Shown: piece after piece, positions 1-22,591 of the stretch
How positions within the stretch are numbered: position 1 is the stretch's first letter
Layout of the letters: each line of letters opens with the position of its first letter
NCBI GenBank assembly: GCA_026770585.1
Contig: MU646303.1
Location: forward strand, 476,684 to 499,274
Origin: Baffinella frigidus
Lineage: Eukaryota > Cryptophyceae > Cryptomonadales > Baffinellaceae
Length of the DNA stretch: 22,591 nt
Direction: 5' to 3'
The notes under the pieces: model-generated
What the model was told of the DNA's origin: nothing
What the model saw: only the letters and a program-made list of their open reading frames with translations
Database searches by the model: none
Translations under genes and position numbers: made by a program

Positions 1-103
1 TCGTACCGGCAGAACTGGTTGTTTTCGTACCGGCAGAACTGGTTGTTTTCGTACCGGCAGAACTGGTTGTTTTCGTACCGGCAGAACTGGTTGTTCTCGT
101 AGT
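1..103 (-). repeat. 24-bp tandem array made from a redox-domain exon
   Basis: Four 24-bp units start at 1, 25, 49 and 73, with a partial fifth at 97; the window opens inside the array. Read on the minus strand each unit is eight codons, YENNQFCR, the sequence at the end of the exon at 391-331. The array therefore looks like a tandem expansion of coding sequence, still in frame. Minus-strand sequence just before it (around 104-110) diverges from the 391-331 exon. Whether this array is translated is unknown. Confidence 0.85.
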
Positions 104-176
104 TCCGGGAGGGGTAAGGGTTTATCGAGGGCTGCTGGGCCGGGTGCACGAGAGGAGAATTAATCAAACCACAAGC

Positions 177-318
177 CACTTAGCAGCCACCGGGGGCTTC
201 ACGGATACAGTCCATCTTAACGATGTGATCTAGAATCGCATCCATTGCCTCGGATTCCAACCGGAATGTCGCCTTGCTCTCAGGGCGAAAAGGAACTCGA
301 CCGCTGCCAAGTGGGGCG
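177..318 (+). mobile_element. MITE family 1 copy (CCACTTAGCAGC termini)
   Basis: Starts CCACTTAGCAGC and ends GCTGCCAAGTGG, giving short terminal inverted repeats. The body contains GGGGCTTCACGGATACAGTC. The same ~140-bp unit recurs at 10327-10470 (plus) and 12536-12677 (minus), and its end alone at about 22152-22192. There is no coding capacity, so it is a non-autonomous DNA element. It sits immediately next to the donor side of the exon at 331-391. No clean target duplication was recognised. Confidence 0.75.
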
Positions 319-330
319 GCGGGCGCGCAC

Positions 331-391
331 CGGCAAAACTGGTTGTTCTCGTAGTTCCAGAGCTGAAGCGGCGCGGCGGGCGCCTCCTTGA
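331..391 (-). CDS. Exon 8: start of second GST-N domain
   Basis: Acceptor GAGCAG precedes base 391. The exon enters in phase 1, encodes KEAPAAPLQLWNYENNQFC, and leaves in phase 2 at donor GTGCGC (330-325). The PLxLWxYE...FCR pattern is typical of the second thioredoxin-like domain of the family. Its 3' end is the source of the 24-bp array at 1-103. A MITE lies just beyond the donor (177-318). Confidence 0.72.
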
Positions 392-3300
392 CTGCTCCCT
401 CCCACCGGGACATGCCGCGTCCTGCCGTTCGTGGGAGGGTTTGGGGGGGTTGGGTTTAGGGTTTGGGGGTTTGAGTTAAGGGTTTGGGGGGCTAGGGTCT
501 AAATCAGAACAGCGCCCTCTTCCATGGAGACATGCAGCGCCCTGCGGCGCATCCAATAGTTTTCATCCGTGGTCTATTGGAGCTATTGGAGCTATTGTAT
601 CTATTGAAGCCCATGGCTCTGACACTCTGCGTCATATACAGCAGTTGTTTTTGTGATATATAGGAGTTTTTTGGTGATATACAGGAGTTGGGTTGACTAC
701 GGGGTTTTCATTTTGAAAAGGAGTCTCGTTCAATTTCACTGGTTTTTGCCCTTTTCAGGTACGAAATGGATCACGTGAACCCCGGGTGGAGCTGTTGAAG
801 ATATTGGAGCCATTGGAACCATTGGCCATTGGAGATGTCGAAGCAGGCGGCTCTAGAGCTGTGATATCACTCGATCCTGTAAGTGGCGGACGGGCGAATA
901 TTCGCCCTAACTCGCCCTAGGCAGGTCCTAGGGCCCTACCGTAGGGCGTATGCGAATACTCGCCACTTAAGGGATAACCATCCCGGGAGGGATGAGCTCT
1001 GCGCGGAGCAGCTTCCCAGACGCCACAACGAGCGCTCGAAACCTCCACTTTTGACATCATTCAGTGAAAATCCCCTGAGTACTTAAGTCAACGACGTCAG
1101 ATCTGGCGTGGATAAGGCTGCAGTTTCCCTCGAGGCCTCCGGCGTGGCGGGAGGGATGGGCTCAGGCGCGTGCACACGCAGTCAATAGTCTAATCCCTAA
1201 CCCCTAAAATCTAAAATCTAAAGCCACTAGTCGCGGGGGGCGAGGCTGAGAACAGGTCGTTTGGATACACAGGCCATTGTCGCGTGGCAGTATCACGGGG
1301 GTGGGGTTATCCCTCAAGTGTACAGCATCCCGGGTTATTCCTCAAGCAATTGACCCCCAAGAGGTCCTAGTCTGGTCCTAGGACCCAACGGTAGGGCATA
1401 TGAGCCTACTCGCCACTTGAGGGATATCGCGGGGGGGTGAGGCTCGGAACCTGCGCGGAGCAGCGTGGGGACCCAGCCGGTGAGGAGCGTGGACTCGAGG
1501 AGCAGCGGGGGGAAGCTGCGCACGCGGGGGGGTGTCAGAAACACTGTGTGGGTGATTACCCTGACTCGGTTCTTGCAGCGTTCGGCTTCGACGCGCGAGG
1601 GAAATGGCAGCTTTTTCATCAAAAGGCCCACGGCTTCGATTCCCTATGGGAGAAGAGTATGAGATGATATCACAATAACCCGTGATATCACAAATAATCC
1701 CAAACTCGCAGATACGTATGGCCTCGATTCCCTACGTCAGAAACCAGGTCCACGGCTCTGATTCCCTGTGGGAGAAGAGTGCTAGAGGATGTGTTGGGAT
1801 GCCCCGTGTTTCCCCTTGACTCGCGTACTTGGCTTCTGATAACGGGCACGTGGAGGCGCTGAGGATGCTGGTCGAGGCTGGGGGCAAGAAGTTGGTGATG
1901 CTGGCGAACAAGAATGGCATCGTTCAGACTACGCGCGAGGGAAATGGCATCTTTTTCATCAAACGGCCCTTTTGATGCATCAGACGGCCCACGGCTTCGA
2001 TCCCCTACGGAACAAGAGTATGAGATGATATCACAATAACCCGTGGTATCACAAATACTCCTAAACTCGCAGATATGTTGTCGCGGGGGACAGTACCTGG
2101 CGCCCTGGCCATAAGTGGCGAGCAGGTAGTTAGCGATGTCCGCGCTTTCTGCCGTTCGAAAAGGGTTCAGCGTTCAGACACGGCGCCATTTTCGATGCAC
2201 GTACTACACACTCAGACTTTCCCGACAAACTCAGCGTGCTATCTTATGGACCACTCGCATGAAGGGTTTAGGGTGGCGCGATTCAGGGTTGCGGGTTGAA
2301 GTTAGGGCCACCCCAACCCCGCAACCCTGAATCGAAAACGGGCACCTCTCACTACGGTTTTGGTTTGCGATTCAGGGTTGCGGGTTTTGGGAGGACCGTA
2401 GAGAGAGGTGCCCGTGTTCTCATCGATCATGTATGGGAACAGCTGCTTGCCCCCCAACGATGCCACCTGCGAGAGGTTGGGATTTAGGGGTTTAGAGGTT
2501 AGGGTTTAGGGTTTGGGGTTTAGGGTTGGGTTTAGAGTTCAGGGGTTGGGGTGCAGGCTGCTTGCCCCCCAGCGCTGCCACCTGAGGGTCCAGGGTTTAT
2601 GGTTTGGGGTTAGGGTTTAGGGTTTAGGGGTGAGGATTTGGGTTCAGGGTTTAGGGTTTAGCCTGATTTCCCCCAAACGCTGCTACCTGACAGGGGTTGG
2701 GATTTAGGGGTTAGGGTTTAGGGTTAGGGGGTTGGGTTCTGGATTTTGGGTTTAGGGTAGGCGCAGGGTTTTCACGCACTGTTCATCCCTCAGTGGCGAG
2801 CGGTTCACATTTGACCCGAAGCAGGGCGCGAGTCTGTACGTATAGGCCTAAGCAAGAGGTAATAGGCTACTCGCCACTTGAGAGATTCGTCACATGACCC
2901 GATCGCGGAAAGATCATGTGCAGTGCCACCTATCCCGTAAGTGGCGGACGGGCGAATATTCGCCCTATTCTATGAGCCAGTCAACCTCTTTTCTTATGAG
3001 CCAGTTAACCCTATCCCTTGAGTGGCCAAGCGGTCAAATTTGACCGCCAAGAGGTTCTAGGCAGGTCCTAGGGCCCTACCGAAGGGCGTATGAGCCTACT
3101 CGCCACTTCATGATGCACAGCACGTCTGTGGAAAGCTCAGGCTCAGAGCAGTGCGAAGCCATGCGAACAACCGCCCGAGTACGCCTGACAACACGGTGGA
3201 CTACGAACCTTTCATCAAAAATCAACTAACCTGCAGACAATCAACTTTTAAGGATTTTTCTAATGCAATTTGGTCACGTAACCCCCTGGAATCCAGGCCC

Positions 3301-6300
3301 AACGAAACCTTCGAAGCCCACCGTGTGGGTAGGCCCTATGACTCCTACACGAGACGCGGAACTAAGCGCCCTAGGGCCTACCGTAAGTCCTGTGCAGTAT
3401 TCTACGCATAGTAGCCTTCAGGGGTGGTACACCGGGTAGCCTTCAGGGGTGGTACACCGAGTAGCAGTATTCTACGCATGTAGCCTTCAGGGGTGGTACA
3501 CCGAGTAGCCTTCAGGGGTGGTACACCGGGTCCATATAAAAGCTGTATTCGCTGCTTTACCGAATGTGGTTCAGGGTGAAGGGCGCAATCCGTTGACCGG
3601 TCCTAACCAGCACACCTCGCACACATACCTCACCTCGTATAGGCCTAAGTAAGCGGTAATAGGCTACTCGCCACTTGGGAGATTCGTCACATGGCCCGAT
3701 CGCTGATTGATGCGGTTCAAACTAGAGGGCAGAATCCGTTGATCGGTCCTAAAAACCAAGCATGACTCACACGCATACCTCACCTCGGCTGAGCCACCAA
3801 GTTTCGGTTAGGATTTCCGTAGGAACAACCCTATGTACGTACGGGTTGCCGAATGAGGTTCAGGGTGGAGGGCGCACACCTACTAGCTCTATCTGAGGTT
3901 TATTCTGGCTCGTCCTAAAGGCTTTATATTCGCCCTTTTGTACTGGATTTCTCCTCTCAAATGATTTTAAGGACCTGAACCGCACACCACATTCCGGTTA
4001 GGATTTCCGTAGGAACAACCCTATGCCCCTACGGGTTGCCAAATGAGGTTCAGGGTGGAGGGCGCACACCTCGTTGCGGTGGCGGATCGAACCCTTGGGG
4101 TAGGGCAGCACCTCGTTGACCGGTCCTAAAAACAAAAAACATAACTAACACGCACCGCGCCCGGACACGAAAAGGTCTACTTCCAAAATCTGGCGTGGTA
4201 TTTCACCTCGTTGCGGTGGCGGATCGAACCCTTGGGGCAGGGCCGCACCTCCACCTGCAGGGGGGAGCACCACTTATTCATCACATCCACGCCAGGTCAT
4301 TAGTCACAATTTCAGGACGCAACGGTTCGGTTCGTGGTACTAAATGGTACGTACTGACCCGGCCACATGCGACGGTTCGTCCTTTCCACGTCCGTTCCGA
4401 ATACATTTTTTTCGAATCCGAGTGATTTTTTTTAAAAAAAGACTTCTAGCTGAAATTCTGACAAATGACCTGGCGTGGTCTAACATAAAAAGCACGACCG
4501 TTAAAAGCATGAACACGCAAGCTCAAAGCGGCCGAGATTTTAGCGGTTGTACCTGCATGGGGGAAGCGCTATTTATGCATCACATGAAAAGCACGACCGT
4601 TAAAAACACGTGCAAGCTCGAAGCGGATTTTATCGGTCGTGCTGTTAATGGTCGTGTTTTGCACCGCGGGAAGCTCAGATTCTGTGCAGGGAGAGATGGG
4701 GGGGGCAGACGCCAGTTTTTTTTACACAAAAAGTTTTTTTATGTCATGTTTTTTTGTCATTCTCTTACCTCGAGGTCGAGGCAGGTGACAAGCTCCCGTA
4801 CGCGGCGGCAGAAGGGGCACGACTGAATAACACACCACGAGCGCTGCCCGCTGAGACAAAACATCGAGAGTGGGACGTCTCAGAGCAAAAGGGAACCTCC
4901 ATTACTAGCAGCAACAGTCCACGCCAGGGCGCGCGAAACATCCACGTTTGACATCTCCCGCACGCGGCGGCAGAAGGGGCACGCCTCGATCCCTCAGGAT
5001 TGATTGGTTTCAGGTTGAGGAGTACCACGCCAGAGGCCTCGAGCCATCAACTTTTGACTCTTGCTGCGAAATCCCGAGGGATTCCAAAATCATCGACGCC
5101 AGATCTGGCGTCGATACGGCAGTTACCCTCGAGGCGTCTGGCGTGGTAAGAGCGTCACAAAAACCTCGGGGTTGAGGTGCGTGACAAGCTACCGTACGCG
5201 GCGGCTGAGAGGGGCACGTCTGAAAAACCACACGAAGAGCGCTGCCCGCTGAGACAAAACATCGAGAGTGGGACGTCTCAGAGCAAAAGGGAACCTCCAT
5301 TATTAGCAGCAACAGTCCACGCCAGGGCGCTTGAAAAATCCACGTTTGACATCTTTCAAGGGGAATGCCTTGAATTCTTAAGTCAACCGCACCAGATCTG
5401 GCGCGGATAAAGCGTCGGTTTCCCTGGATCATTGTGGCGTGGGTGGACACCTCGAGGTCGAGGTAGGTGACCAGCTCCCGCACGCGGCGGCAGAAGGGGC
5501 ACACCTCGAATTCGTAGATCACGATCGCCTTCTCAGGACGCACACTCCTCGCGTGGTAGGTGCCCTCCTCGCAGTTTGGTGATTCTCCTACCTCCCAAAA
5601 GGAAGGTTCCGCACTCTCCCGAGATCTACCAGTCTGAGTCGGTCTGTTGTTTTGATGTAAGTCGGTCTGTTTTTGTATATTTCCGGTCTGTCTTTGTGCA
5701 TGTTTTCTTGGTGACGATCTTACCTCGAGGTCGAGGTAGGTGACAAGCTCCCGCACGCGCCGGCAGAAAGGGCACGCCTCGAACTCGTAGATCACAATCG
5801 GCTTCTCAAGACGCACCTGCGCCGCAACGAGCTCAGTCCCAGTCTAGTTACTCTCGCCAATCGCCAATTTCTTCGGACCCGGGCTCACCAAATTTCATCT
5901 CGAAAGATAACTGAATCAGTTCCCTAATTAGCGTTTTCATTCAATTAGGAGGCCTAATTGAATTTACTATGCCTTCACTAATTTCTCCTAGTCAACCTCC
6001 TATTGAAAAGGAACTGATTCAGTTATCTTCCGAGATGAAATTAGTGAGCCCACATAGGTTGGGACTGAGCTAGGCATCGTGCATTCGTCCACGCTGGATG
6101 CTCCCAGGCGGGATACGCTTCGAACTCGTAGATGACGATCGGCTTCTCAAGACGCACCTGCCACGCGAGGAGGTTATCTCTGAGAAACACTTTTAGAAGT
6201 CCTTTTCCTAATTGGGCCTTTCAAGGGCCTGAGGCGCACTGACGGTCACGTGACCCAGAATCCGGCAGAAGGCGAGCAAGTGCTGACTGCCGTTGAGTTT

Positions 6301-11084: not shown

Positions 11085-11116
<32 letters not shown>

Positions 11117-14817: not shown

Positions 14818-14865
<48 letters not shown>

Positions 14866-15137: not shown

Positions 15138-15168
<31 letters not shown>

Positions 15169-15777
15169 CCGTCTCTCCTCTGACCGGATCCCACCCGCGC
15201 CACTCAACAGGTGCAGGTGGATGTCTACCTCCAGACTCCCGCGGGTCCCGAGCTCTGGACGTTCCACCCCCGCAACGGCACCCCACCCAAGGCCACCCTC
15301 GTCCTCGTCACCCCGGGTGCGCCCCTGCCACACCCACTCGAGCCCCGAAATGTCACGGTTTTAAAACAGGGATTCTTTTACAAGTGATGCGGGAAGAGAA
15401 CTGTGTAGTAATTTTCACACACATAGGGGAGTTTGGTCACGTATCTGCGGGATATCCCGCAGTTACGTGACTGGGCCCGAGCTTTGGACGTTCCCCCCGC
15501 GCGACGGCACCCCCCCCACGGCCACCCTCGTCCTCGCCACCCCGGGTGCGCCCCTGTCGGATATCCTAGAAAAACGCTACATTTGATGGATTAGATTTAT
15601 TAGCAGCGCATAATTATTTTAATAATAAAACATCATTAACACAATACCTTGGTAGCCCGGTGTGTGGAGGTGTGCCCGCTGTGTGGGATCGGGCCACGAA
15701 AGGAGTTTTTGTCGGACGGTCCTCCTGCGTGACGGCACACCCCCCACGGCCACCTTCGTCTTCGCCACCCTGGGTGC

Positions 15778-15842
<65 letters not shown>

Positions 15843-18800
15843 CCTCTATTTATCCTTCTCGCTCGCGCGCGCTCTGTCGGATATCCTGACCGATTCTTGG
15901 TCAGAATCTGACAAAACGTCCTTTCGTAGCCCGCTGTGTGGGATTGTGTCCGCTGTATGGGATCGGGTCACGAAGGCATTTTCGTAACGAAGGCATTTCC
16001 GCTGTCGGTACGAAGGCATTTCCGCTGTCGGTACGAAGGCATTTCCGCTGTGTGGGATCGGGTTACGAAGTCCTATTCTGAACGGCGTGGCGCGGCAGAC
16101 GCGTCCGGCACGCGGTTTTGCTCCACCGTGGAGGTTAATGGGGTAACGGCCTGAAAATGGGGTAGTTAGGCCTACGGCATTGCCTAGGACCTCCTACCGT
16201 AGGCCGAGACTTTTTGGTCCTAGGATCCCTCGGCCTACGGTAGGAGGTCCTAGGCAATGCCGTATGCCTAACTACCCCATTTTCAGGCCGTTGGCCTATG
16301 AAGGTGGCTGCGGCTGGGAAGCAAGTTCATCCCGGAAGATAACTGAATCACTTCCTTTTCAATAGGAAGTCGCATAGGAGAAATTAGTTAAGGCATAGTA
16401 AACTCGATTAGGCATCTCCTAATTAAATGAAAACGCTAATCAGGGAACTGGTTCAGTTATCAAAATAAATAAAATAAAAAATGCGGCAGATGCGTCCGGA
16501 AAGCGCTTTTGCTCCACCGTGGAGGTGGCTGCGCCTGGAAAACAAGTGGCACGGGGGAGCGGCAGTGTTTCCGCGGGAGGGGTGCTCGGGGATGCTGCCT
16601 TATCGGAGGAACAGAAGGTCGGCGTCCCCCGTATTAGTGTGAACCTGGATCGGATGGGGTTGTAGAGCTGTTTTCGCCATCATTTGGCCACGCACAGAAT
16701 GAAACAAATTTTGGTTTTGTGTCTGCGCCGTCAACATTTGCTGCCATTGCGGCTGGGAGGCAAGTGGCGCGGGGGAGCAGACACGAATAAAATTATGAGG
16801 TGCTGGCCAAAGAAATTCACTGCACAAAGGCTTTACTGTTACTAGTATGCTTGAGTGTGTTATTACTAGTATGACCCTGCTGGGAAGCAAGTGGCGCGGG
16901 GCAGCGGGAGTGTTCCTGCGGGGGGGGGGGCTGGGAAGGCTGCCCTGTCGGAGGAACAAAAGATGTGGGGGTTGGGGGTTAGGGGGTTAGGGTTTGGGGG
17001 TTAGGGTTTGGGGGTTAGGGTTTGGGGAAGAGCAGAAGGTTGGAGTCCCCCGTACGACTATAGTTGCGGACACGAATACAGATATCAGGTGCTGGTCAAC
17101 GAAACTTACTACACGAATGCTTTACTGTCATTGGTATGCTTGAGTATACTATTACAAGTATGACCCTGATGGGAGGCAAGTGGCGCGGGGGAGCGGGAGA
17201 CCTGGTTTAGGGTTTAGGGTTTGTTCCTGACCTGGTTTAGGGTTTAGGGTTTGTTCCTACGGGGGGGGCTGTTCGGGGATGCTGCCCTGTCGGAGGAACA
17301 GAACGTGTGGGGGTTGAGGGTTAGGGTGTGGGGAAGGGCAGAAAGTCGGGGTCCCCCGTACGACTTGAGTTGCGGACTTGAATCAAAATATTAGCTGCTG
17401 GCCTACACCTATTAGTAGATAAGCTCTTTCCTATTACTAGTATGACCAAACTGTGTGGTAACTTTCGTTGCCATACACCGATGTGTTGATTGGGAGGCAA
17501 GTGGCACGGGGGAGCGGGAGCGTTCCTGCGGGGGTGGCCCTCCCCCTTAGGGAGGCTGCGCTCTCGGAGGAACGGAAGGTCGGCGTCCCCCGTACGACTG
17601 TTGACCCAACCCTAAACCCTGAACCCTTTCGCTGGCAGCGCACTGCTAGCACAGAAGAATTTCAGATGGAAACATCGTCGAAGGCCCCGGTGGCTGCTAC
17701 GTGGCATGTGTGTGTGGTGCAGACGGTGTAGGAGAGGGTGCTGAAAAAACGACGGGGCATGTGTGTGTGTGTGTGGTGCTCGTATGAGCGGTCGACACGG
17801 GGTAAAGTAAGTGGCATAACGTGTAGCATGTGCGGCACTGACGCTGATTATTTGGCAAACAAATATCAATCACTGTCATGCAGATGGTGTTGCAGAGTGA
17901 AAACCTTAAACCCGAACCCCCAACACCCAATCCTAAACCCTGAACTCTACAACCCTCGATGCAGACGGTGCTGGAGAAGGTACTGGAGGGGGAGTCGGTG
18001 TTCATCACCGGGTGTGGCGGGACTGGCAAGTCACACCTCATGCACCACGCGGTGCGAGCACCCGAAACTCGAAAATTGAAACTTGAAATTTGAAATACGA
18101 AACACCGAGATACGAAACACAAAAGCCGAAAGCCGAAACCGGGTGCGTCGGGACCGGAAAGTCGCACCTCATGCACCACGCAGTGCGCCCGGAGCCCAAA
18201 CCCGAACTTTGAAAATTGATAACTGAAAATTAAAACACGTCACACGAAAAAACGAAACCCTAAATCCTAAACGGGTTGCGGTGGGACCGGCAAGCCAAAG
18301 GCTCGAGGTTAGGGGGTTGGGGGGTTAGGGGGAGAGTCGGTGTTCATCAGGGGGGGTGGCGGGACCGGGAAGACGCACCTGATGCACCATGCGGTGCGCC
18401 CGAATTCCAACCCCGAAGCTTGAAATTTGAAATCTGACATTTGAAATACGAAAAAACGAGGCACGAAACACGAAAGCCGAACCCCGAAACCGGCAAGTCA
18501 CACCTCATGTACCGCGCGGTGCGCCCGGAACCCGAAATTTTAAATTTTAAATACGAAAAACGAAACACGAGACACAAGACACGAAACCCGAGATCCGAAA
18601 CCGGAAACCGGCTAGTGGCACCTTATGTGCCACGCGGTGCGAGCGCCCCACACCCTGGATCCGAAACCTGAAATCCGAAACCCCACACCCCAAACCCGAA
18701 ACCCGAAACCCGAAACCCGAAATCCGAAACCCGAAACCCTGAACCCGAAATCATCAACGCTACCCCGCGAGGCAGACAGCGGCGCTGCGGCGGAAGCGCA

Positions 18801-21354
18801 AAAACATTAGTGAAAATGGAACACGCAGATAAAGTCGCAGATAAAGGACACGCACTGAGACACGTGCATGCCCTGCGTTGCAGATCAAGGCTTGATTGTG
18901 CACCCCTGGGGGGCGGGTGCACAGCCCGCGCGCCGTAGCCCGCTCTAAAGCATCTACGCCGCGTCGTGCAGATGCGTTATCTCGCTACCGACACCCCTGT
19001 GTATAACATTTGACCACTACGATGTTCAAATGCAGAGACGTTGTAATGGTCAAATAAATAATGGAATTGGAAAACGCAGATCAAGGCGATTGGGCGGGTG
19101 CACAGCCCGCGTGAGGTGGCCGTCTGCGCTACCACCGGTATCGCGGTACAACCCCCTACCCACACAGTGGGGTTCGAGGGTTGCGTTGGGGCCGGAATTC
19201 CGGGTGTTACGTGACCAATTTGCATCAGAAAAATCTGGCATCGTGATGCGTCCCATGACTTCTTTAGTCCGACTGTAGGGTTTACGGGTTTATGGGTGCA
19301 ACCGTCTGTGCTACCACAGGCATCGCGGTGCAACCCCCACACTTCCTAGCTCTGTCTCCGCGATCTCAGCGAGCGTTATTGCCACCACTGCGCGCGCGCT
19401 AATGGGGGTTGGACCTTAGCGCTGCCTCAGTTTATTTGTTCTCACAAATCTCGTGAGCCCGGGCGCTTTCCCGCGCCAAAGTTGACGGGTTTGTACCGCG
19501 AATTCAGCACGTCAACTTAACAATAGTCCGGCAACCCGAGTGAGGCGCGGCGGCACGACCCTCGACCGAGACCGCGCCCAGGAACCTCTGGAACACCTGT
19601 CTCTTGCAACCTCCTGGGCTCTAAACCCCAAACTCTAAACCCCAAACCCTAAACCCTAAACTATAAACTATAAACCCTAAACCCTAAACCCTAAACCCTG
19701 AACCCTAAACCCTAAACCCTAATCCTAAACCCTAAACCCTAAACCCCAAACCCTAAACCCCAAACCCTAGACCCTAAAACCTAAACCCTAAACCCTAAAA
19801 CGGTGTTGCCCACAGGTGAAACAGTGTAACAAAAGTAACCCCGGGCTGAACAGTGCCCCCTCCAAAACACAGGCGTGGTACCTTGGAGGCACGACGCTCG
19901 ACTCCTTAGCACACCACGCCCGCGTCCACGCCAGACTCGCTCTGTTTGTAAAGTCACGTTGCTTGGGGGGTCGCAGGCGTGCCACATCGGGGGCACAACC
20001 CTCCACTCCTTCGCAGGCATCGGCCTGGGGACCGCGCCGGTTGATCAGGTCCAACCACCAGCAACCCGTAGCAGCTTTTACCGGATCCTCCCAAGGATTC
20101 GGGTATCTGATTTAAAAATTCATCTTCCCTATGACCCTACGGTAGGAACCCCTAGGGACCTCGAATTTCTGACGGGAGATACGGCCAGTTATGTCCGGTT
20201 TAGCTGAAATTTACTACAGTACCCGATCCGGTTATAAGCTGCAACGGGTTGCTGGTGGAACCCACGAGCCACATTGCCGAATATCCCTTGAGTGGCGAGT
20301 AGACCCAGGGTTTGGCGCCGCGCAGGTTGCTCAGGTCCTCGCCTCTCTAGTTATGACACTCTCGTCCGAGAGTGTAGCGCACACATAGTGACAACGAGTG
20401 GGTGGAGTACGCGTCACGTGACACTGCTTCTTGATCGCTCCTTGTGAGCGGGGGGGGGTACGTGTTCATCTCCGGAAACGATTAAAAATGTTACTTTATG
20501 GGACCTTCCTGGCAACGAAAATCAATACATTGAGGCTTCACTATTACTAATAAACTCCAATCGTGTAGTGAATTTGGTTGCCAAAAAGGTCCCAGAAAGT
20601 AATATTTGAATTGGGCTCCGCAGATTAGTGTGTTCGGGTCCTTGAGGCAGCTAACGAAGAAGCTATCAAGAACATCAAGCATCTATTGAACCATGGAGCT
20701 AACTGTACAGTCCGTGCGCTTCCCCGGTGGTCCCCCACCTGAGTACTGGGCACATGTATGGCTGCTTAGCTTCGGAGATCGGACGGGATCCGGCGTTTCC
20801 AACCAAGTATGACCGTACAGAACTTTCCCCCAGGGCCGCGTGGCAGCTAACGAGGAGGCTAACGATGAAATCAACTCGACAGTCAATAACCTGTTCTCCA
20901 CCGTTACTTAAGTTGACGGAGGTTCCACTTTTGCTTTGAGACGTTCCACTCTCGACGTTTGTCTCGGTGGGCAGCGCTCTTCACAGGAGTCGAGAAAAAA
21001 GAGGAATTAAAGATGCATTTAACGAGGAAGCTAACGCATATGCCAACTCGGCAGCTAACTCGGCAGCTGACGATGAAATTAACTCGGCAGCAGCTAACGC
21101 ACAAGCTAACACTTAAGCTAACAATGAAGATGCCGAGGAAATTAACCATATATTTAACGAGGAAGTTAACTCGGCAGCCAACCATGAAACCAACTCGGCA
21201 TTCAATAACCTGTTCGTTCCTCGTTGATATCAAAGTTGACGAAATCAACTTTTCGCAAGTTGACGAAATCAACTTTACGCGGCAGCTTGTGAAGAAGATG
21301 GCCCCCGTGGCGAAGGGGCGCTGGATCGAGACCAAAGTCATGATCGTCGACGAG
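8350..21354 (+). CDS. PIF1-family helicase with targeting leader, AT-hook and OTU-like domain (multi-exon, C-terminal half not seen)
   Basis: Joined exons: 8350-8584, 8733-8834, 9129-9662, 10805-10901, 11963-12080, 15211-15316, 16490-16617, 17965-18051, 19080-19145, 19977-20048, 21286-21354. They total 1614 nt (538 codons) with every phase matching and GT...AG throughout. Order: Arg/Ala/Phe-rich leader; AT-hook KRGRGRPRK; Ala/Gly/Lys linker; OTU-like region from GGDSMFLAVVRLL to RFCSTVEV; then LSEEQKTVLEKVLEGESVFI, Walker A GCGGTGKS, ATTGIAACHIGGTTLHSFAG (exon 8/9 junction) and Walker B region RWIETKVMIVDE. PIF1 proteins are 5'-3' DNA helicases for replication, telomere and organelle-DNA maintenance. 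LHSFAGIGLG points to cellular PIF1 rather than Helitron helicase. Motifs III-VI were not found before the window end. Start codon and exon 1 are the least certain parts. Confidence 0.82.
8733..8834 (+). CDS. Helicase gene exon 2: AT-hook
   Basis: Acceptor GGGTGCAG (8725-8732) and consensus donor GTAAGT (8835-8840). It reads AASGFFMGPEPPDGPPVKRG then RGRPRKDGLPPVQ. GRGRPRK flanked by Pro and basic residues is a canonical AT-hook, a minor-groove DNA-binding motif. An in-frame stop (8702-8704) upstream means that without exon 1 the first ATG would be 8753. Leaves in phase 1 into 9129. Confidence 0.78.
9129..9662 (+). CDS. Helicase gene exon 3: Ala/Gly/Lys repeat linker and start of OTU-like region
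   Basis: Acceptor CACGCACAG, enters in phase 1, open for 177 codons. The first two thirds repeat AKAGKPAGGA-like units about ten times, a flexible basic low-complexity linker reminiscent of H1 tails. The end, WEGAEELAGMLRERGLELEH then VKAG, leads into the GGDSMF of the next exon as expected for an OTU-like domain. Donor GTGTGG (9663). A copy of the last ~45 bp with donor GTATGG is at about 9733-9778. Minus-strand frames here are shadows. Confidence 0.72.
9665..9870 (+). repeat. CCCGAAA heptamer array with a copy of the exon 3 end
   Basis: Directly after the exon 3 donor the sense strand runs through degenerate CCGAAACCCGAA and CCCGAAG units (TTTCGGG on the other strand). The array is interrupted at about 9733-9778 by a second copy of the exon end, CGGGAAAGGGGCCTGGAACA...AAGGCTG|GTATGG. 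A third fragment, GAACACGTGAAA, lies near 9859. The same array type follows the exon 5 and exon 8 donors. Confidence 0.8.
9940..10230 (+). other. Intron 3 stretch with minor repeats, no exon recognised
   Basis: GGACTACGAGTTATCATTTT...GTCTCGTCCAATTTCACG resembles 692-742. GGTCCTAGGGATGGCCCTAC resembles the MITE family 2 interior. GGCGCTAAGCGCGTGACAC is locally self-complementary. No convincing coding segment. Confidence 0.5.
10235..10285 (+). repeat. Perfect 18-bp inverted repeat at an exon 4 copy
   Basis: GACTCAAATTCACGAAGA (10235-10252) and TCTTCGTGAATTTGAGTC (10268-10285) are exact complements with a 15-bp loop. The right arm ends where the acceptor-like CCAG of the following exon 4 fragment begins. 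Confidence 0.85.
10287..10326 (+). pseudogene. Exon 4 fragment interrupted by MITE 1
   Basis: After CCAG the frame reads SDSLSLAVARLLP, matching GDSMFLAVVRLLR of exon 4, then stops abruptly where MITE family 1 (10327) begins. The Ser at the catalytic position is kept, while the following Phe is Ser here. Confidence 0.72.
10327..10470 (+). mobile_element. MITE family 1 copy
   Basis: CGCCACTTAGAAGCAACCAG at the left and GCCGCTGCTAAGTGGG at the right, with interior GGGGCTTCACGGATACAGTC as in 177-318. Inserted in the exon 4 fragment. Confidence 0.8.
10534..10676 (+). mobile_element. Foldback family 3 copy (TTTACTACAC core)
   Basis: Arms CATAGGGAAACGGTTTTAAT...GAAATTTACTACAC and GTGTAGTAAACTTC...ATTAAAACTGTTTTCACATG pair imperfectly around an AT-rich loop. 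Relatives: half copy 12845-12915, and elements at 13505-13888, 14282-14421 and 20487-20605. No coding capacity. Confidence 0.8.
10692..10735 (+). pseudogene. Exon 4 fragment with acceptor
   Basis: Acceptor GCGGCAG, then in the right phase GGDSIFLAVVRLLR, after which the sequence diverges (SHQRSTL). The 3' half and donor are missing. The Ser of GDS is retained. Confidence 0.8.
10805..10901 (+). CDS. Helicase gene exon 4: GGDSMF (OTU-like catalytic-loop) exon
   Basis: Acceptor CTGCTAG; enters in phase 1, leaves in phase 2 at donor GTCGCT. It encodes GGDSMFLAVVRLLRRGGAEP then ASWKPDSWSGLAR. GDSxFxAV aligns with the GNCLFRAL catalytic motif of OTU cysteine proteases, so the Cys position holds Ser. 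It is the only complete copy of four. A CT microsatellite starts a few bases past the donor. Confidence 0.75.
10908..11125 (+). repeat. CT microsatellite
   Basis: Imperfect (CT)n with CTCTGTCT and CTATCTAT interruptions on the helicase sense strand. Ser/Leu-rich frames across it are artefacts of the repeat. Confidence 0.95.
11129..11205 (+). pseudogene. Exon 4 copy, 3' part with donor
   Basis: Reads VVRLLRRGGAEPAAWKPDSW then SGLAR and ends at the same donor GTCGCT, again followed by CT repeats. The acceptor and GGDSMFLA part are missing. With 10805-10901 it shows a duplication of exon end, donor and CT tract as one block. Confidence 0.85.
11211..11560 (+). repeat. CT microsatellite with assembly gap (N at 11241-11511)
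   Basis: CT repeats enter and leave a run of 271 N. The gap is therefore probably unassembled microsatellite. Its real length and any further exon copies inside are unknown. Confidence 0.95.
11624..11680 (+). pseudogene. Exon 5 fragment (copy 1)
   Basis: After ACACACAG reads IARAEVVAHMEINPWDF then a stop; ENTEDF has become INPWDF. A pyrimidine-rich stretch and acceptor precede it. Decayed. Confidence 0.75.
11766..11837 (+). pseudogene. Exon 5 fragment (copy 2)
   Basis: After CACACACAG reads IARAEVVAHMEENTEDFLNG then MTL, identical in protein to the complete copy apart from Ile/Val at the start, then diverges into SYPHS. No donor. It may be usable as an acceptor but is incomplete. Confidence 0.82.
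11963..12080 (+). CDS. Helicase gene exon 5: OTU-like domain helix region
   Basis: Acceptor CGCATACAG; enters in phase 2 (first G completes Arg with AG of exon 4) and leaves in phase 0 at donor GTACGA. Reads VARAEVVAHMEENTEDFLNG then MTLAELQKRTADIAWPGTA. RxxVVxHMxENxExF and the following WxGT are as in OTU-like domains. Two 5' copies precede it and two 3' copies follow (12245-12258, 12781-12839). Confidence 0.78.
12145..12258 (+). repeat. CCCGAAA/CCAGAAA array plus copy of the exon 5 end
   Basis: Heptamers CCCGAAA, CCAGAAA and CCTGAAA run from about 12150 to 12244, then GGCCTGGCACTGCG (12245-12258) repeats the last 14 bases of exon 5, followed by GTAAGA. The phrase GAGATGCGGACACCCGG flanks the array on both sides, so a duplication encloses the array. 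Confidence 0.8.
12467..12677 (-). mobile_element. MITE family 1 copy with duplicated end
   Basis: On the minus strand from 12677: CCACTTAGCAGCAACCAGGG...TTCACGGATACAA...GTCGCTGCGAAGTGG (about 12536). The terminal end plus outside sequence (GATCCAGCACGACGTTCTGA) is tandemly duplicated as a 48-bp unit at 12467-12514 and 12515-12562. Confidence 0.75.
12678..12780 (+). other. Short palindromic CCGTAGG-type element and MITE end
   Basis: CTAGGACCCTACGGTAGGCA and ACCCGTAGGGACATAGGGGG belong to the small foldback seen in intron 4 of the other gene. It ends GTGGCTGCTAAGTGG, a MITE 1 terminus, abutting an exon 5 fragment. Confidence 0.5.
12781..12839 (+). pseudogene. Exon 5 fragment, 3' part
   Basis: Reads MTIAELQKRTAKIA then a TGA in place of TGG, then PGTP, and ends at donor GTGAGC. 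The stop shows it is not used as is. A MITE 1 end abuts its left side. Confidence 0.8.
12842..12915 (+). mobile_element. Half copy of foldback family 3
   Basis: TATGAAAACGGTTTTAATTT...GGGTAATGAAATTTACTACACAGC matches one arm of 10534-10676, cited in part. Bases 12915-13320 contain no exon; TTCAAGTTTGATC/GTGTTCGAGTTTGATC motifs repeat near 13138-13230. Confidence 0.7.
13325..13412 (-). repeat. Dispersed repeat family 5 copy
   Basis: Reverse orientation of the GAGCGCTGCCCACCGAGACA repeat: ACGGAGGTTCCGCTTTTGCT...TTTGTCTCGGTGGGCAGCGC. Nearly the same as 20892-20985 and, inverted, 22038-22132. Confidence 0.8.
13505..13888 (+). mobile_element. Large foldback of family 3
   Basis: Left arm CATATGGAAACACTTATAAT...ACTGGAT...TTACTACAC and right arm TATGTAGTAAATTTC...ATCCAGTT...ATTATAAGTGGTT pair imperfectly. 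An internal GTAGTAAAGATCTC (about 13637) suggests a nested second copy. No exon recognised inside. Confidence 0.7.
13956..14052 (+). repeat. CT/CCCT microsatellite
   Basis: (CCCTCT)n then (CT)n on the helicase sense strand. Confidence 0.95.
14175..14500 (+). repeat. Direct duplication split by a foldback element
   Basis: CACTCACCACGCTCATTCCA...CCCCAACATGGTAGGC occurs at about 14180-14252 and 14426-14499 with very few differences. The foldback at 14282-14421 lies between. Confidence 0.85.
14282..14421 (+). mobile_element. 56-bp-arm foldback (family 3 core)
   Basis: Left arm 14282-14337 starts TTATCCGGGGAAACC and ends TTACTACACAA. Right arm 14366-14421 is its complement with one or two changes. 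The 28-bp loop contains ATTAGTAATATTAA. GAGTG occurs close to both ends and may be a target duplication. Confidence 0.9.
14513..14658 (+). mobile_element. Foldback with GTGCCGGTTTGC arms
   Basis: Left GCCGCGTTTCGGGTTGCCAG...TGTGCCGGTTTGC; right GCAAACCGGCACA...GGAAACCCGGAAAGCGGGC. Imperfect arms of about 35 bp, loop about 75 bp. No coding capacity. Bases 14660-14815 show nothing recognisable. Confidence 0.75.
14820..14958 (+). repeat. CT microsatellite with CTCGCTTG interruptions
   Basis: (CT)n with repeated CTCGCTTGCTCT and CTCGCTCT units, on the sense strand of intron 5. Confidence 0.95.
15108..15176 (+). repeat. CT microsatellite upstream of exon 6 acceptor
   Basis: (CT)n ending about 35 bp before the acceptor at 15210; it may serve as an oversized polypyrimidine tract. 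Confidence 0.95.
15211..15316 (+). CDS. Helicase gene exon 6: late OTU-like segment
   Basis: Acceptor ACTCAACAG, enters in phase 0, leaves in phase 1 at CCGG|GTGCGC. Reads VQVDVYLQTPAGPELWTFHP then RNGTPPKATLVLVTP. Joined after WPGTA of exon 5 it gives the beta-rich end of an OTU-like domain. Its final G joins AT of exon 7 to give Asp. Two decayed copies follow (15473-15545 and 15700-15773). Confidence 0.75.
15436..15471 (+). repeat. 36-bp palindrome
   Basis: GTCACGTATCTGCGGGAT followed by ATCCCGCAGTTACGTGAC; only one position pair fails. It directly abuts the exon 6 copy at 15473. Confidence 0.9.
15473..15545 (+). pseudogene. Exon 6 copy, 3' part
   Basis: GGCCCGAGCTTTGGACGTTC onward matches GPELWTF...PPKATLVLVTP with base changes and an altered frame in the C-run; ends with the same CCGG|GTGCGC donor. 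Confidence 0.82.
15700..15773 (+). pseudogene. Exon 6 copy, end only
   Basis: GACGGCACACCCCCCACGGC...TTCGCCACCCTGG|GTGCGT repeats the last third of exon 6 with its donor. A CT microsatellite starts immediately after. Sequence from 15560 to 15655 is AT-rich without an exon. Confidence 0.75.
15779..15845 (+). repeat. CT microsatellite
   Basis: Near-perfect (CT)n a few bases past the donor of the exon 6 copy at 15773. Confidence 0.97.
15925..16075 (+). repeat. 23-bp minisatellite with GTGTGGGATCGGG flanks
   Basis: CGAAGGCATTTCCGCTGTCG-type units start at 15988, 16011 and 16034. CGCTGTGTGGGATCGGG phrases surround the array and also occur near 15678-15700. This looks like local expansion of an intronic motif. 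Confidence 0.85.
16099..16325 (+). pseudogene. Exon 7 copy split by an intron-like foldback insertion
   Basis: 16099-16133 reads ASGTRFCSTVE after acceptor GCGGCAG. After an insertion at 16134-16303 it resumes at 16304 with VAAAGKQV, then ends where MITE 4 begins (about 16326). If the insertion is removed as a GT...AG intron, the frame is identical in layout to the intact exon at 16490-16617. Confidence 0.8.
16134..16303 (+). mobile_element. Introner-like foldback element (GT...AG, 64-bp arms)
   Basis: Begins GTTAATGGGG and ends CTATGAAG. Inside lie 64-bp inverted arms at 16145-16208 and 16229-16292 (AACGGCCTGAAAATGGGG...), differing at about one position. AGGT occurs at both junctions, so a 4-bp target duplication would itself supply the splice sites. 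The interior contains CCTACCGTAGG and GGTCCTAGGATCC motifs shared with other short elements in the window. Confidence 0.82.
16326..16461 (-). mobile_element. MITE family 4 copy
   Basis: GATAACTGAATCACTTCC at the left and GGAACTGGTTCAGTTATC at the right. The interior (AGGAGAAATTAGTTAAGGCA) matches the reverse complement of 5891-6042 closely. It sits between exon 7 copy 0 and the intact exon 7. Confidence 0.85.
16490..16617 (+). CDS. Helicase gene exon 7: end of OTU-like domain, linker and LSEEQK
   Basis: Acceptor TGCGGCAG; enters in phase 1, leaves in phase 0 at AAG|GTCGGC. Reads ASGKRFCSTVEVAAPGKQVA, RGSGSVSAGGVLGDAALSEE, QK. RFCSTVEV sits where OTU domains carry the catalytic His (HYxSV), which here reads Arg. 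LSEEQK begins the PIF1 domain (Q-motif region) and joins TVLEKVLEG of exon 8 with exactly the spacing of PIF1 proteins. Only complete copy of several. Confidence 0.85.
16749..17603 (+). repeat. Tandem array of exon 7 copies with TTTAGGG-like insertions
   Basis: GGGAGGCAAGTGGCGCGGGG starts copies near 16751, 16869, 17169 and 17491. Full-length 3' ends with SEEQ are at about 16963, 17309 and 17578 (reads AALSEERK, donor GTCGGC). In two copies a TTTAGGG/GGGTTAGGG tract (16965-17028; 17307-17332) splits the end, which restarts as CAGAAGGT or CAGAAAGT. In one copy a duplicated ~30-bp unit GACCTGGTTTAGGGTTTAGG... (17200-17256) lies earlier. Linking DNA carries ACTACACGAATGCTTTACTG, foldback family 3 core. 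Confidence 0.85.
17604..17964 (+). other. Intron 7: decayed exon 8 starts and CCCTAAA motifs
   Basis: GTGTGGTGCAGACGGTGTAG (17713-17732) and TGCAGATGGTGTTGCAG (17879-17895) resemble the exon 8 acceptor and start, the first with a stop. CCCTAAACCCTGAACCC lies at 17608-17625 and CCTAAACCCTGAACTC at 17930-17948, ending just before the true acceptor. A (GT)n run lies at 17760-17775. Confidence 0.65.
17965..18051 (+). CDS. Helicase gene exon 8: PIF1 Walker A exon
   Basis: Acceptor CGATGCAG, donor GTGCGA; 87 nt in phase 0. Reads TVLEKVLEGESVFITGCGGT then GKSHLMHHA. GCGGTGKS is the P-loop (motif I) for ATP binding; VLEGxxVFxTGxxGTGKSxL is the characteristic PIF1 form. Confidence 0.93.
18056..18765 (+). 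repeat. CCCGAAA-type array with five decayed Walker A copies
   Basis: Degenerate CCCGAAA, AACTTGAAATTTGAAA and ACGAAACACGA units alternate with fragments of exon 8: about 18140-18186 (GTGKSHLMHHAVR with changes), 18270-18296, 18331-18397 (ESVFI then GGTGKTHLMHHAVR), 18488-18527 (GKSHLMYRAVR) and 18600-18642. Most fragments keep the GCGGTGCG exon/donor junction. The last part (18655-18750) is nearly pure CCCGAAA repeats. Confidence 0.85.
18875..18960 (+). pseudogene. Exon 9 copy, decayed
   Basis: GTTGCAGATCAAGGC and then GGGCGGGTGCACAGCCCGCG match exon 9 with its acceptor, but are separated by an insertion and followed by CGCCGTAGCCCGC in place of GAGGTGGCCGTC. Confidence 0.75.
19080..19145 (+). 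CDS. Helicase gene exon 9: PIF1 motif Ia, first half
   Basis: Acceptor AAACGCAG, donor GTACAA; 66 nt in phase 0. Reads IKAIGRVHSPREVAVCATTG then IA. PREVAVxAxTGIAA is PIF1 motif Ia; the second Ala comes from the next exon. Confidence 0.9.
19154..19232 (-). repeat. Dispersed repeat (TGGTCACGTAAC type), copy 2
   Basis: Reverse complement of 3254-3332 with moderate divergence (CCCACACAGTGGGG...GTTACGTGACCAATTTGCAT). It lies between exon 9 and its 3' copy. Confidence 0.75.
19291..19336 (+). pseudogene. Exon 9 copy, 3' part
   Basis: ACCGTCTGTGCTACCACAGG then CATCGCG|GTGCAACCCCC repeats VCATTGIA and the donor. The 5' part is absent. Confidence 0.82.
19420..19550 (-). repeat. Dispersed repeat family 6, copy 2
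   Basis: Reverse complement carries CTCACTCGGGTTGCCGGACT and GCGGTACAAACCCGTCAACT, matching 7022-7080. CCTTAGCGCTGCCTCAG at its left also matches the same family. Confidence 0.65.
19618..19800 (+). repeat. Interstitial CCCTAAA (telomere-type) array
   Basis: About 180 bp of CCCTAAA units with CCCCAAA, CTATAAA and CCCTGAA variants; the longest and cleanest telomere-like tract here. It lies on the helicase sense strand inside intron 9. Orientation is opposite to the GGGTTTAGGG tracts at 16965-17332. Confidence 0.92.
19868..19920 (+). pseudogene. Exon 10 copy, decayed
   Basis: GGCGTGGTACCTTGGAGGCA then CGACGCTCGACTCCTTAGCA reads AWYLGGTTLDSLA, a damaged form of ACHIGGTTLHSFA. Confidence 0.8.
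19977..20048 (+). CDS. Helicase gene exon 10: IGGTTLHSFAGIGLG exon
   Basis: Acceptor GTCGCAG, donor GTCCAA; 72 nt in phase 0. Reads ACHIGGTTLHSFAGIGLGTA then PVDQ. IGGTTLHSFAGIGLG is a signature of cellular PIF1 helicases and continues motif Ia of exon 9. Confidence 0.95.
20310..20342 (+). pseudogene. Exon 10 end fragment
   Basis: GGCGCCGCGCAGGTTGCTCA then GGTCCTC resembles GGGACCGCGCCGGTTGATCAG|GTCC. Only the last ~25 bases and the donor are recognisable. Confidence 0.5.
20487..20605 (+). mobile_element. Foldback family 3 copy
   Basis: TTACTTTATGGGACCTTCCT...GGCAACGAAAATCAATACA pairs with GTAGTGAATTTGGTTGCCAA...AAGGTCCCAGAAAGTAA. The loop contains ATTACTAATAA. Confidence 0.82.
20644..20690 (+). 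pseudogene. Exon 11 start fragment
   Basis: GAGGCAGCTAACGAAGAAGC resembles the exon 11 acceptor and start (CGGCAGCTTGTGAAGAAGAT). It abuts the 5S-like gene. Another, TGGCAGCTAACGAGGAGGCT, flanks it on the other side at 20840. Confidence 0.6.
20703..20820 (-). rRNA. 5S rRNA gene (or full-length 5S-derived copy)
   Basis: On the minus strand, 118 nt from base 20820. The ends CTGTACGGTC and GACTGTACAG pair as helix I. The conserved blocks GGATCCCGTCCGATCTCCGA, AGCTAAGC and CAGTACTCAGGTGGGGGACC are present; they include the internal promoter region for TFIIIA/Pol III. No T-run follows the 3' end (TTAGCTCC), so normal Pol III termination is doubtful; it may be a pseudogene or a 5S-derived retroelement head. 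It lies antisense inside the last helicase intron, between exon 11 fragments. Confidence 0.85.
20838..21230 (+). repeat. Degenerate array derived from the exon 11 start
   Basis: CGGCAGCTAACTCGGCAGCT, GAGGAAGCTAACG and GATGAAATTAACTCGGCAG units repeat irregularly at 20838-20885 and 21000-21205. They fit amplification of the exon 11 acceptor/start (CGGCAG|CTTGTGAAGAAG) with drift. A long plus-strand frame exists but its KLTRQLTMK pattern is just the repeat. Confidence 0.7.
20892..20985 (-). repeat. Dispersed repeat family 5 copy
   Basis: CCACCGTTACTTAAGTTGAC...GAGACGTTCCACTCTCGACG...TCTCGGTGGGCAGCGCTC; inverted with respect to 22038-22132 and like 13325-13412. Confidence 0.82.
21231..21285 (+). 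repeat. Two 24-bp self-complementary units before exon 11 acceptor
   Basis: AAGTTGACGAAATCAACTTT is followed by TCGC at 21231-21256 and by ACGC at 21258-21280. Each unit can form a small hairpin. The second runs into the acceptor GCGGCAG. Confidence 0.8.
21286..21354 (+). CDS. Helicase gene exon 11: PIF1 Walker B exon
   Basis: Acceptor TACGCGGCAG, donor GTGCTC; 69 nt in phase 0. Reads LVKKMAPVAKGRWIETKVMI then VDE. RWxxTKVLIIDE is PIF1 motif II (Walker B, DE for ATP hydrolysis). A CT microsatellite starts right after the donor. The next exon (SMLD...) was not found in the window. Confidence 0.92.
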
Positions 21355-21357
21355 GTG

Positions 21358-22132: not shown

Positions 22133-22190
22133 ACCTGCAGAAGGGTTGTTTCTGATCAAGGCGAAAAGGTAACTCGGCCGATGCTCAGTG

Positions 22191-22380: not shown

Positions 22381-22423
22381 CGGACAGTAGGAGAGTGCAT
22401 CGAGTTCTCTCCGGTCGCGTGAG

Positions 22424-22458
22424 CCACTCTTGCGATGATGTTGGACGCGGTGCTCTAC
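22424..22458 (+). pseudogene. Exon 11 end fragment
   Basis: GCGATGATGTTGGACGCG|GTGCTCTACC matches GTCATGATCGTCGACGAG|GTGCTCTCTT by eye, including the donor, and is likewise followed by CT repeats. Only the exon end is present. An alternative reading as the start of the next PIF1 exon (MMLDAVL) is weaker. Confidence 0.55.
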
Positions 22459-22492
22459 CCCTCTGCAAGTGTCGATGTTGGGCGCTGCCGTT

Positions 22493-22546
22493 TTCTCTCT
22501 CTCTCTCTCCCCTTGAATTACTCTCTCTCTCTCTCTCTCTCTCCGC

Positions 22547-22581
<35 letters not shown>

Positions 22582-22591
22582 CCTCCCTCCC
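22493..22591 (+). repeat. CT microsatellite at window end
   Basis: (CT)n with one CCCCTTGAATTA interruption, ending in (CCCT)n at the window edge. Confidence 0.97.

What the first reader, a model, noticed from the sequence alone, without database searches (positions are those of the whole stretch)
1..22591. General pattern: exons in both genes are multiplied as pieces carrying their own splice site
At least ten of the nineteen proposed exons have one to five nearby same-strand partial copies that keep either the acceptor plus exon start or the exon end plus donor. One exon 5 fragment in the left gene is inverted. Copies include adjacent intron DNA. This is not gene duplication or retroposition. 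It suggests a local mechanism that repeatedly copies exon/intron borders, possibly tied to breaks or replication pausing there. I know of no named system of this kind.
Basis: partly seen in the sequence, partly recalled or inferred. Interest (0 to 1): 0.9.

Follow-up and report, generated by a model that had tools for sequence, protein, structure and literature searches.

The report
Exon-end fragments scattered through algal introns
In two genes of a cold-water alga the long introns are littered with decaying copies of the ends of the neighbouring exons, most still carrying a splice signal; similar copies were seen elsewhere in the same genome and look like scars of error-prone DNA copying that made the introns grow, though why the copies so often stop near the splice site is not settled.

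Summary
The window holds two divergent genes of the cryptophyte Baffinella frigidus: a tandem GST_N protein (minus) and a PIF1 helicase (plus). A spliced database protein fixes the nine left exons (243 of 243 residues); eleven right exons join in one open frame. Thirteen of 20 exons have same-strand copies in adjacent introns: 25 of 25 that reach the donor border lie downstream (23 keep GT); 8 of 9 that reach the acceptor border lie upstream (8 of 8 keep AG). Copies decay like neutral DNA. Twelve of 12 introns over 800 nt carry copies; 0 of 6 shorter ones do.

Local direct duplications cover introns nearly as much as exons, and three of three readable random stretches are similarly dense; one holds an ankyrin gene with the same pattern. 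Best reading: generic local X-filler-X duplication by break repair or template switching, filtered by selection on the mRNA. But border copies are about twice as frequent among pairs as in random simulations, and homology often stops within 6 nt of the splice site, so a border preference is not excluded. Closest known: staggered-break repeats in new Daphnia introns and direct repeats at splice sites.

The parts
331..8233 (-). Left gene, nine exons: L1 8177-8233, L2 7824-7952, L3 7494-7619, L4 5724-5816, L5 4207-4254, L6 2397-2466, L7 2097-2148, L8 1451-1515, L9 331-421; tandem GST_N-domain protein, gene runs off the left edge
   Evidence: 243 of 243 residues identical to spliced protein P0001; Pfam GST_N_3 2.7e-31 on P0001
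8386..21354 (+). Right gene, eleven exons: R1 8386-8584, R2 8733-8882, R3 9129-9662 (or to 9617), R4 10805-10901, Rm1 11963-12080, Rm2 15211-15316, Rx 16490-16617, Ra 17965-18051, Rb 19080-19145, Rc 19977-20048, Rd 21286-21354; PIF1-type helicase, gene runs off the right edge
   Evidence: all in phase, no stop; PIF1 4.6e-20; R1, R2 and R4 agree with NCBI T484DRAFT_1759558 of Baffinella frigidus, R3 except its donor
5449..5543 (-). whole copy of exon L4 (93 nt plus GT), 91.6% identical, downstream
4745..5221 (-). three further L4 fragments downstream: 5163-5221 and 4745-4824 (exon end plus donor), 4955-4989 (interior)
6115..6172 (-). upstream copy of L4: acceptor plus exon start
4067..4114 (-). 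copy of L5, exon positions 4-48 plus GTG, 95.8%
2557..2635 (-). upstream copy of L6: acceptor plus exon start with 58 nt of CCCTAAA-rich intron
941..1012 (-). downstream copy of L8: last 14 exon nt plus 60 intron nt (donor GT lost)
1..106 (-). downstream copies of L9 end plus donor as a 24-nt tandem array (encodes repeated YENNQFCR)
9732..9829 (+). downstream copy of R3 end plus donor plus CCCGAAA-type intron (mostly intron if the earlier R3 donor is right)
10690..10732 (+). upstream copy of R4: acceptor plus exon start, 93%
11114..11240 (+). downstream copy of R4 end plus donor, next to the N gap
11604..11835 (+). two upstream copies of Rm1 (11604-11685, 11751-11835): acceptor plus exon start
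12245..12841 (+). two downstream copies of Rm1 end plus donor (12245-12264, 12780-12841)
15473..15778 (+). two downstream copies of Rm2 end plus donor (15473-15556, 15714-15778)
16092..16135 (+). upstream copy of Rx: acceptor plus exon start
16748..17594 (+). Rx copies downstream: 16880-16962, 17026-17054, 17252-17306, 17498-17594 reach the exon end; 16748-16778 and 17177-17199 interior
17718..17743 (+). upstream copy of Ra: acceptor plus exon start
18138..18680 (+). four tandem downstream copies of Ra (Walker A exon) end plus donor, each followed by CCCGAAA-like intron
19302..19338 (+). downstream copy of Rb end plus donor
19870..19911 (+). upstream copy of Rc: acceptor plus exon start
20318..20338 (+). 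downstream copy of Rc end plus donor
2483..2771 (.). telomere-like heptamer arrays beside L6 and its copies; others at 436-485, 3801-3833, 9670-9732, 9785-9846, 12157-12244, 16987-17023, 17204-17252, 17907-17941, 18661-18750, 19621-19799
   Evidence: 9 of 13 arrays lie within 25 nt of a border or border copy

Best explanation
The copies are scars of a genome-wide process of small local direct duplications (tens to a few hundred bases) with unrelated DNA between the two copies: a segment X becomes X-filler-X. The likely chemistry is repair of staggered breaks with fill-in and filler capture, or replication template switching (inferred). Where X spans an exon border, the exon copy joined to the rest of its exon stays in use and the other falls inside the intron, is spliced out (shown for the nine left exons by a spliced protein) and decays as neutral DNA (shown by codon positions). 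Duplications inside exons are purged unless in frame, as in the repeat-rich exon R3 (inferred). This makes introns longer, and exon-derived pairs stay recognisable longer because one partner is under selection. The frequent stop of homology 0-6 nt past the splice site is attributed mainly to fast replacement of intron flanks; this last step is the weakest.
For: Local pairs within 1.5 kb: 74 direct, 6 inverted (fold-backs left out), none in one block shuffle. Direction: 25 of 25 donor-reaching copies downstream, 8 of 9 acceptor-reaching copies upstream, as X-filler-X plus selection predicts and free dispersal does not. Changes unique to one copy fall 26/23/37 on codon positions 1/2/3 (p = 0.15 against equal) while sites where the functional exon differs from all copies fall 5/2/12 (p = 0.016). 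P0001 contains none of the copies. 12 of 12 introns over 800 nt carry copies, 0 of 6 of 581 nt or less. Similar density in 3 of 3 readable random stretches (2.7-4.4 pairs per readable kb; window 3.3). Two beta-tubulin genes differ in exon 2 only at third positions (47 of 1,240 sites) yet their introns align no better than within the shuffled range (28; shuffles mean 20, maximum 34) and agree by eye for only about 6-7 nt at each splice site. Telomere-like arrays, break-repair scars in mammals (abstract), sit within 25 nt of a border or copy in 9 of 13 cases, 4.0 expected, 0.3% of shifts.
Against: Simulated random X-filler-X duplication with selection does not give this many border copies: border/pair ratio 0.32 observed, as high in 3 of 432 runs; exon excess among pairs of 88% or more identity 2.6-fold, as high in 3 of 732 runs. 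Junction clustering within 3 nt was matched in 45 of 732 runs, and the share of border copies with 6 or fewer intron nt (0.38) in 58 of 432, so these two are weaker. Fast turnover in the simulation did not repair the border excess. 24 of 71 local pairs are below 80% identity and cover 15.6% of non-exon bases, which sits badly with very fast intron turnover. The telomere-array association fails at 15 nt (11% of shifts), is 3.4% at 50 nt, and fails against true borders alone (18% at 25 nt). Sites covered by a single copy give 9/8/26 by codon position (p = 0.0008), a mixture of both branches.
Confidence: 0.58

Rival explanations
1. Border-directed duplication: breaks or fork stalls form preferentially at splice junctions (for example at R-loops, at nucleosome edges of short exons, or through AG|GT microhomology in end joining), so exon ends are copied more often than other DNA and the block ends at the splice site.
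For: 8 of 38 junctions have a block end within 3 nt (2.7 expected, 0.3% of shifts); 16 of 33 border copies carry 6 or fewer intron nt; border/pair ratio twice the simulated one; in an ankyrin gene outside the window one block ends 5 nt past the donor and one starts 1 nt before the exon.
Against: Overall duplication coverage of exons is not significantly raised (38.6 vs 31.7%, 23% of shifts); two beta-tubulin gene copies show the same sharp stop, with exon-versus-intron scores of only 14-19; the window was picked because a reader saw the pattern, so its p values are too good; the ankyrin gene was noticed by eye, not sampled blind.
Confidence: 0.25
2. RNA-templated copying: pre-mRNA or splicing intermediates are reverse transcribed and captured at local breaks.
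For: One copy is almost exactly one exon (5449-5543) and another nearly so (4067-4114).
Against: No two copies of successive exons lie joined; apart from R3-internal hits, copies lie only in an intron next to their exon, same strand, and nearly all obey the upstream/downstream order; most donor copies carry the intron's GT.
Confidence: 0.04
3. Introner-type transposons carry the splice sites and multiply.
For: Fold-back elements and dispersed repeats lie in the introns.
Against: The copied pieces are exon sequence specific to each exon; the window's self-comparison shows no repeat pair spanning whole introns; reported introner target duplications are 3-9 bp, here 13-93 aligned exon nt.
Confidence: 0.05
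4. Functional alternative (mutually exclusive) exons kept by selection.
For: Copies often keep frame and GT/AG; pooled differences lean to third positions, 49/37/116.
Against: That lean comes largely from the functional exon and from non-independent copies; copy-only changes are 26/23/37; 6 of 39 copies are frame-shifted, 3 more have stops; nearly all are partial; spliced P0001 uses none.
Confidence: 0.05
5. Assembly artefact.
For: A 271-base gap in a CT microsatellite at 11241-11511.
Against: Aligned copies are 73-96% identical (one 20-nt interior piece is identical), so they are not duplicated reads, and both genes read through as open frames.
Confidence: 0.02

Closest known systems
Internal direct repeats of newly gained Daphnia pulex introns, staggered double-strand breaks (PMC4202315; passages read)
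   Same: Direct repeats inside introns and of the terminal bases of the adjacent exon, with inserted DNA between; repeated events may lengthen introns
   Different: There 4-12 bp exon-end repeats in recently gained introns; here 13-93 aligned exon nt, often several per exon, in 12 of 18 introns
Direct repeats near intron splice sites (Rogers and Bendich 2025, PMC11782384; abstract and part 1 of 2 of the results read)
   Same: Direct repeats at or within 10 bp of exon/intron borders, read as traces of breaks and insertion
   Different: There 4-30 bp, paired between the two ends of the intron; here long, multiple, mid-intron, and hardly any such repeat at the opposite intron end
Intron gain by tandem genomic duplication of an AGGT-bearing exon segment (reviewed in PMC3443670; passages read)
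   Same: Tandem duplication of exon sequence with AG|GT, mRNA kept unchanged by splicing
   Different: No exon copy abuts the opposite splice site of the intron, so these events seem to have lengthened existing introns, not created them
Small tandem duplications by fill-in at staggered break ends (PMC8355091; abstract read)
   Same: Gives direct duplications at breaks
   Different: Here most copies are spaced by unrelated filler; chemistry not tested
Interstitial telomeric sequences inserted at double-strand breaks (PMC7215372; abstract read)
   Same: Telomere-like arrays at internal sites, here often beside exon borders or their copies
   Different: Degenerate CCCTAAA/CCCGAAA units in an alga; insertion not shown against an empty allele

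Membership tests
Staggered double-strand-break repair scars (Daphnia type) | Direct repeat of exon-terminal bases with inserted DNA between | tested here: met
   33 border-reaching copies, nearly all at a distance from their exon that exceeds the repeated block
Staggered double-strand-break repair scars (Daphnia type) | Empty allele or relative without the insert | not tested
   no second strain or close relative compared at DNA level
Tandem genomic duplication intron gain | Intron 3' end repeats the upstream exon end, or intron 5' end repeats the downstream exon start | tested here: not met
   18 introns: the own-pair score beats all 17 other introns in 0 cases for the first and 1 case (L1-L2, score 16) for the second
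Introners | A family of near-identical introns with TSD or TIR across genes | tested here: inconclusive
   no repeat pair spans whole introns in the window, though dispersed and fold-back repeats are shared between introns; no genome-wide family search was run
Tandem exon duplication for alternative splicing | Whole exon with both splice sites, frame conserved by selection | tested here: not met
   only L4 and nearly L5 and R4 have whole-exon copies; copy-only changes not different from neutral by codon position
Interstitial telomeric sequence at break | Telomeric units of the species at an internal site | tested here: inconclusive
   TTTAGGG-like arrays present; the species' telomere unit was not determined

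The most novel reading that the evidence does not exclude
In this cryptophyte, introns grow outward from their splice sites: transcription- or splicing-linked breaks form at exon borders, repair re-copies the exon end with its splice dinucleotide and inserts filler (often telomere-like DNA), so each long intron is a stack of its own exon ends.
Probability: 0.22. Interest if true: 0.82.

Novelty: new variant of a known kind. Interest (0 to 1): 0.55.

Why it matters
How introns grow and turn over is an old open question. Here long, datable exon-end repeats mark individual duplication events inside introns, with the functional exon as a fixed reference, so event rate, direction, block ends and decay can be measured genome-wide. 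If the border preference holds up, it would tie intron growth to breaks made at splice sites.

Tried and rejected
Tandem-genomic-duplication origin of the introns: no signature at opposite intron ends beyond one weak case. Functional copies: rejected by codon positions of copy-only changes, although the pooled counts (49/37/116) first looked like constraint; the pooled count mixes shared changes. Differential conservation alone: simulated over 14 settings and 756 runs; it did not reproduce the border excess, so I keep the border rival alive. A displaced-flank search (is the missing intron flank found further on?) gave scores above the random 95% point for a number of the 33 copies, largely in arrays or heptamers, and I draw nothing from it. 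Exon against intron divergence within one duplication: 0.112 vs 0.173, ratio 1.55, p = 0.058, 16 copies with at least 11 aligned intron nt; not significant. Genes in the random stretches by codon-phase scan: 7 candidate pairs, mostly low-complexity, not used. Rfam and tRNA scans: one 5S-like hit only. Papers: 10 searches used; by their listings none returned a paper on exon-end copies in cryptophyte introns; only open-licence texts are held.
Full report
What the window is. The window lies in a 382-Mb assembly of 1,364 contigs. The N-terminal exons of the right gene match an NCBI protein of Baffinella frigidus, T484DRAFT_1759558; a published draft of strain CCMP2293 is 534.5 Mb with 41.1% repeats and GC 53.9% (PMC9756366, passages; a different assembly). 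Two genes diverge from about 8.2-8.4 kb. The left one encodes two GST_N-type domains (P0001: GST_N_3 2.7e-31, two stretches) and the right one a PIF1-type helicase (4.6e-20 on joined exons Rm2-Rd).

Exon structure. The nine left exons were fixed by P0001, a protein from a 2,502-base jgi contig: 243 of 243 translated residues agree. The locus spans nearly 8 kb in the window alone, so that contig must be spliced. The eleven right exons were set by homology to P0121 and P0122 and by phase; they join into one frame without a stop. The NCBI model agrees on R1, R2 and the start of R4 but ends R3 45 nt earlier; Rm1 and Rm2 rest on phase and open frame only. If the earlier R3 donor is right, R3 and one donor copy leave the counts below.

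The copies. Each exon with 60 nt of flank was compared with the window (hits inside exon R3 and one R3-interior hit at 7742-7784 in the left gene dropped, E <= 1e-3 kept). Thirteen of 20 exons have same-strand copies; L1, L2, L3, L7, R1, R2 and Rd have none. Thirty-three copies reach a border on the expected side: 25 donor, 8 acceptor. The check for the other order found only the whole-exon L4 copy, which reaches both ends and lies downstream. GT is kept in 23 of 25 and AG in 8 of 8. Sixteen of 33 carry 6 or fewer intron nt. The four L9 units and four Ra units are copies of one another, so independent events are fewer.

Are the copies alive? Where two or more copies cover a site, changes unique to one copy fall 26/23/37 on codon positions 1/2/3 (p = 0.15 against equal), and sites where the functional exon differs from all copies fall 5/2/12 (p = 0.016). 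Sites covered by a single copy give 9/8/26 (p = 0.0008), a mixture of both branches. Of 39 copies 6 are frame-shifted and 3 more have a stop. The copies decay; the exon is constrained.

Is the border special? Local direct pairs (under 1.5 kb) number 74, local inverted ones 6, fold-backs left out. After dropping three R3-internal pairs they cover 38.6% of exon and 31.7% of non-exon bases (23% of circular shifts as high). Pairs of 88% identity or more cover 25.7% and 10.5% (1.3% of shifts); pairs below 80% cover 10.2% and 15.6%. Block ends lie within 3 nt of 8 of 38 junctions (2.7 expected, 0.3%), within 6 nt of 10 (4.7, 1.3%), within 10 nt of 11 (7.1, 8.6%). Simulations of random X-filler-X duplication with selection and several turnover regimes gave mean border/pair ratios of 0.12-0.17 against 0.32 (3 of 432 runs as high) and a mean young exon/non-exon ratio of 0.59-0.75 against 2.6 (3 of 732). 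Junction clustering within 3 nt was matched in 45 of 732 runs, and the share of border copies with 6 or fewer intron nt in 58 of 432. So a simple random process is not the whole account, chiefly for the number of border copies. The window was chosen by a reader who saw the pattern, which makes all these figures optimistic.

Elsewhere in the genome. Of twelve random 10-kb stretches asked for, three are readable. They hold 4.4, 3.5 and 2.7 local direct pairs per readable kb, covering 34-39%; the window has 3.3 and 32%. Reading their open frames by eye I noticed two places. In L017 two exons of an ankyrin gene (joined, Ank 3.1e-8): the end of the first with GTGCC recurs 381 nt downstream (82.9% over 70 nt), the start of the second recurs 283 nt upstream (91.7% over 36 nt, but with TG where the exon has AG), and CCCGAAA-like DNA follows both exons. 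L016 holds an array of exon-like units. I did not count exons without copies there, so this shows that the pattern is not confined to the window, not how common it is.

A natural control. Two beta-tubulin genes (L006, L008) differ at 47 of 1,240 exon-2 sites, all third positions, yet their single introns (133 and 366 nt; 135 and 368 in the script's count, which takes in two exon bases) align at score 28, inside the range of 200 shuffles (mean 20, maximum 34); by eye likeness ends about 6 nt after the donor and 7 nt before the acceptor. The longer intron holds an internal 59-nt repeat but no clear exon fragment. Sharp ends at splice sites thus also arise without border copying, through fast intron replacement. 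Exon homogenisation between the two genes could mimic this, and it is one pair only.

Link to intron length and breaks. All 12 introns longer than 800 nt carry border copies and none of the six of 581 nt or less does (Fisher p = 5e-5); recognisable copies make up 2,162 of 18,515 intron nt. Nine of 13 telomere-like arrays lie within 25 nt of a border or copy border (4.0 expected; 0.3% of shifts), but 11% of shifts match the count at 15 nt and 3.4% at 50 nt, and true borders alone give 4 of 13 (18%). In mammals such arrays are inserted during break repair (PMC7215372, abstract), which fits filler capture.

Literature. Daphnia introns show internal direct repeats ascribed to staggered breaks, including 4-12 bp repeats of exon ends (PMC4202315, passages). 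Direct repeats of 4-30 bp at or near splice sites were reported in 213 of 213 introns of many kinds (PMC11782384, abstract and results part 1 of 2). Tandem genomic duplication as a source of introns is reviewed in PMC3443670 (passages). The introner survey PMC9860276 does not name Baffinella, cryptophytes or cryptomonads in its main text (term search). What is unusual here is length, number and direction of the repeats.

Verdict. Observation confirmed; interpretation partly supported. The parsimonious account is a generic local duplication process plus selection and detection bias; a residual border preference remains unexplained and testable.

Noticed in passing
20702-20820 minus: A 5S rRNA-like copy (Rfam RF00001, 87 bits) lies inside the Rc-Rd intron.
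   Followed up: no
5881-6051, 7107-7283, 14267-14437, 16145-16292, 20468-20625, 22190-22381: Fold-back elements (69-88% self-complementary) in non-exon DNA; at 14179-14499 a 74-nt direct repeat (98.6%) flanks one.
   Followed up: partly
4839-4903, 5234-5302, 13343-13412, 20898-20983, 22040-22126: A dispersed repeat of up to about 88 bp in both orientations.
   Followed up: no
7812-7823 and the other donors: Splice donors look almost without consensus beyond GT (20 read), and the L2 donor is GC, a GC-AG intron supported by P0001.
   Followed up: partly
8234-8385: The two genes diverge with about 150 nt between the start codons used here, a possible shared promoter.
   Followed up: no
9130-9458: Exon R3 holds repeats with periods of 27, 30 and 36 nt, all multiples of three: similar duplications tolerated inside a low-complexity coding exon.
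   Followed up: no
9617-9662: Two candidate donors for R3 45 nt apart, both in phase; the NCBI model takes the earlier one.
   Followed up: partly
L006 and L008: Two beta-tubulin genes with only third-position differences in exon 2 but introns without clear likeness.
   Followed up: yes
L024: A random stretch with 31 local inverted pairs against 23 direct ones, unlike the other two.
   Followed up: no
L016 6586-7385: Tandem units each with an exon-like RKEYVEELRKRHEEV piece; only the most upstream copy appears to have an acceptor, with CCCTAAA repeats before it.
   Followed up: partly
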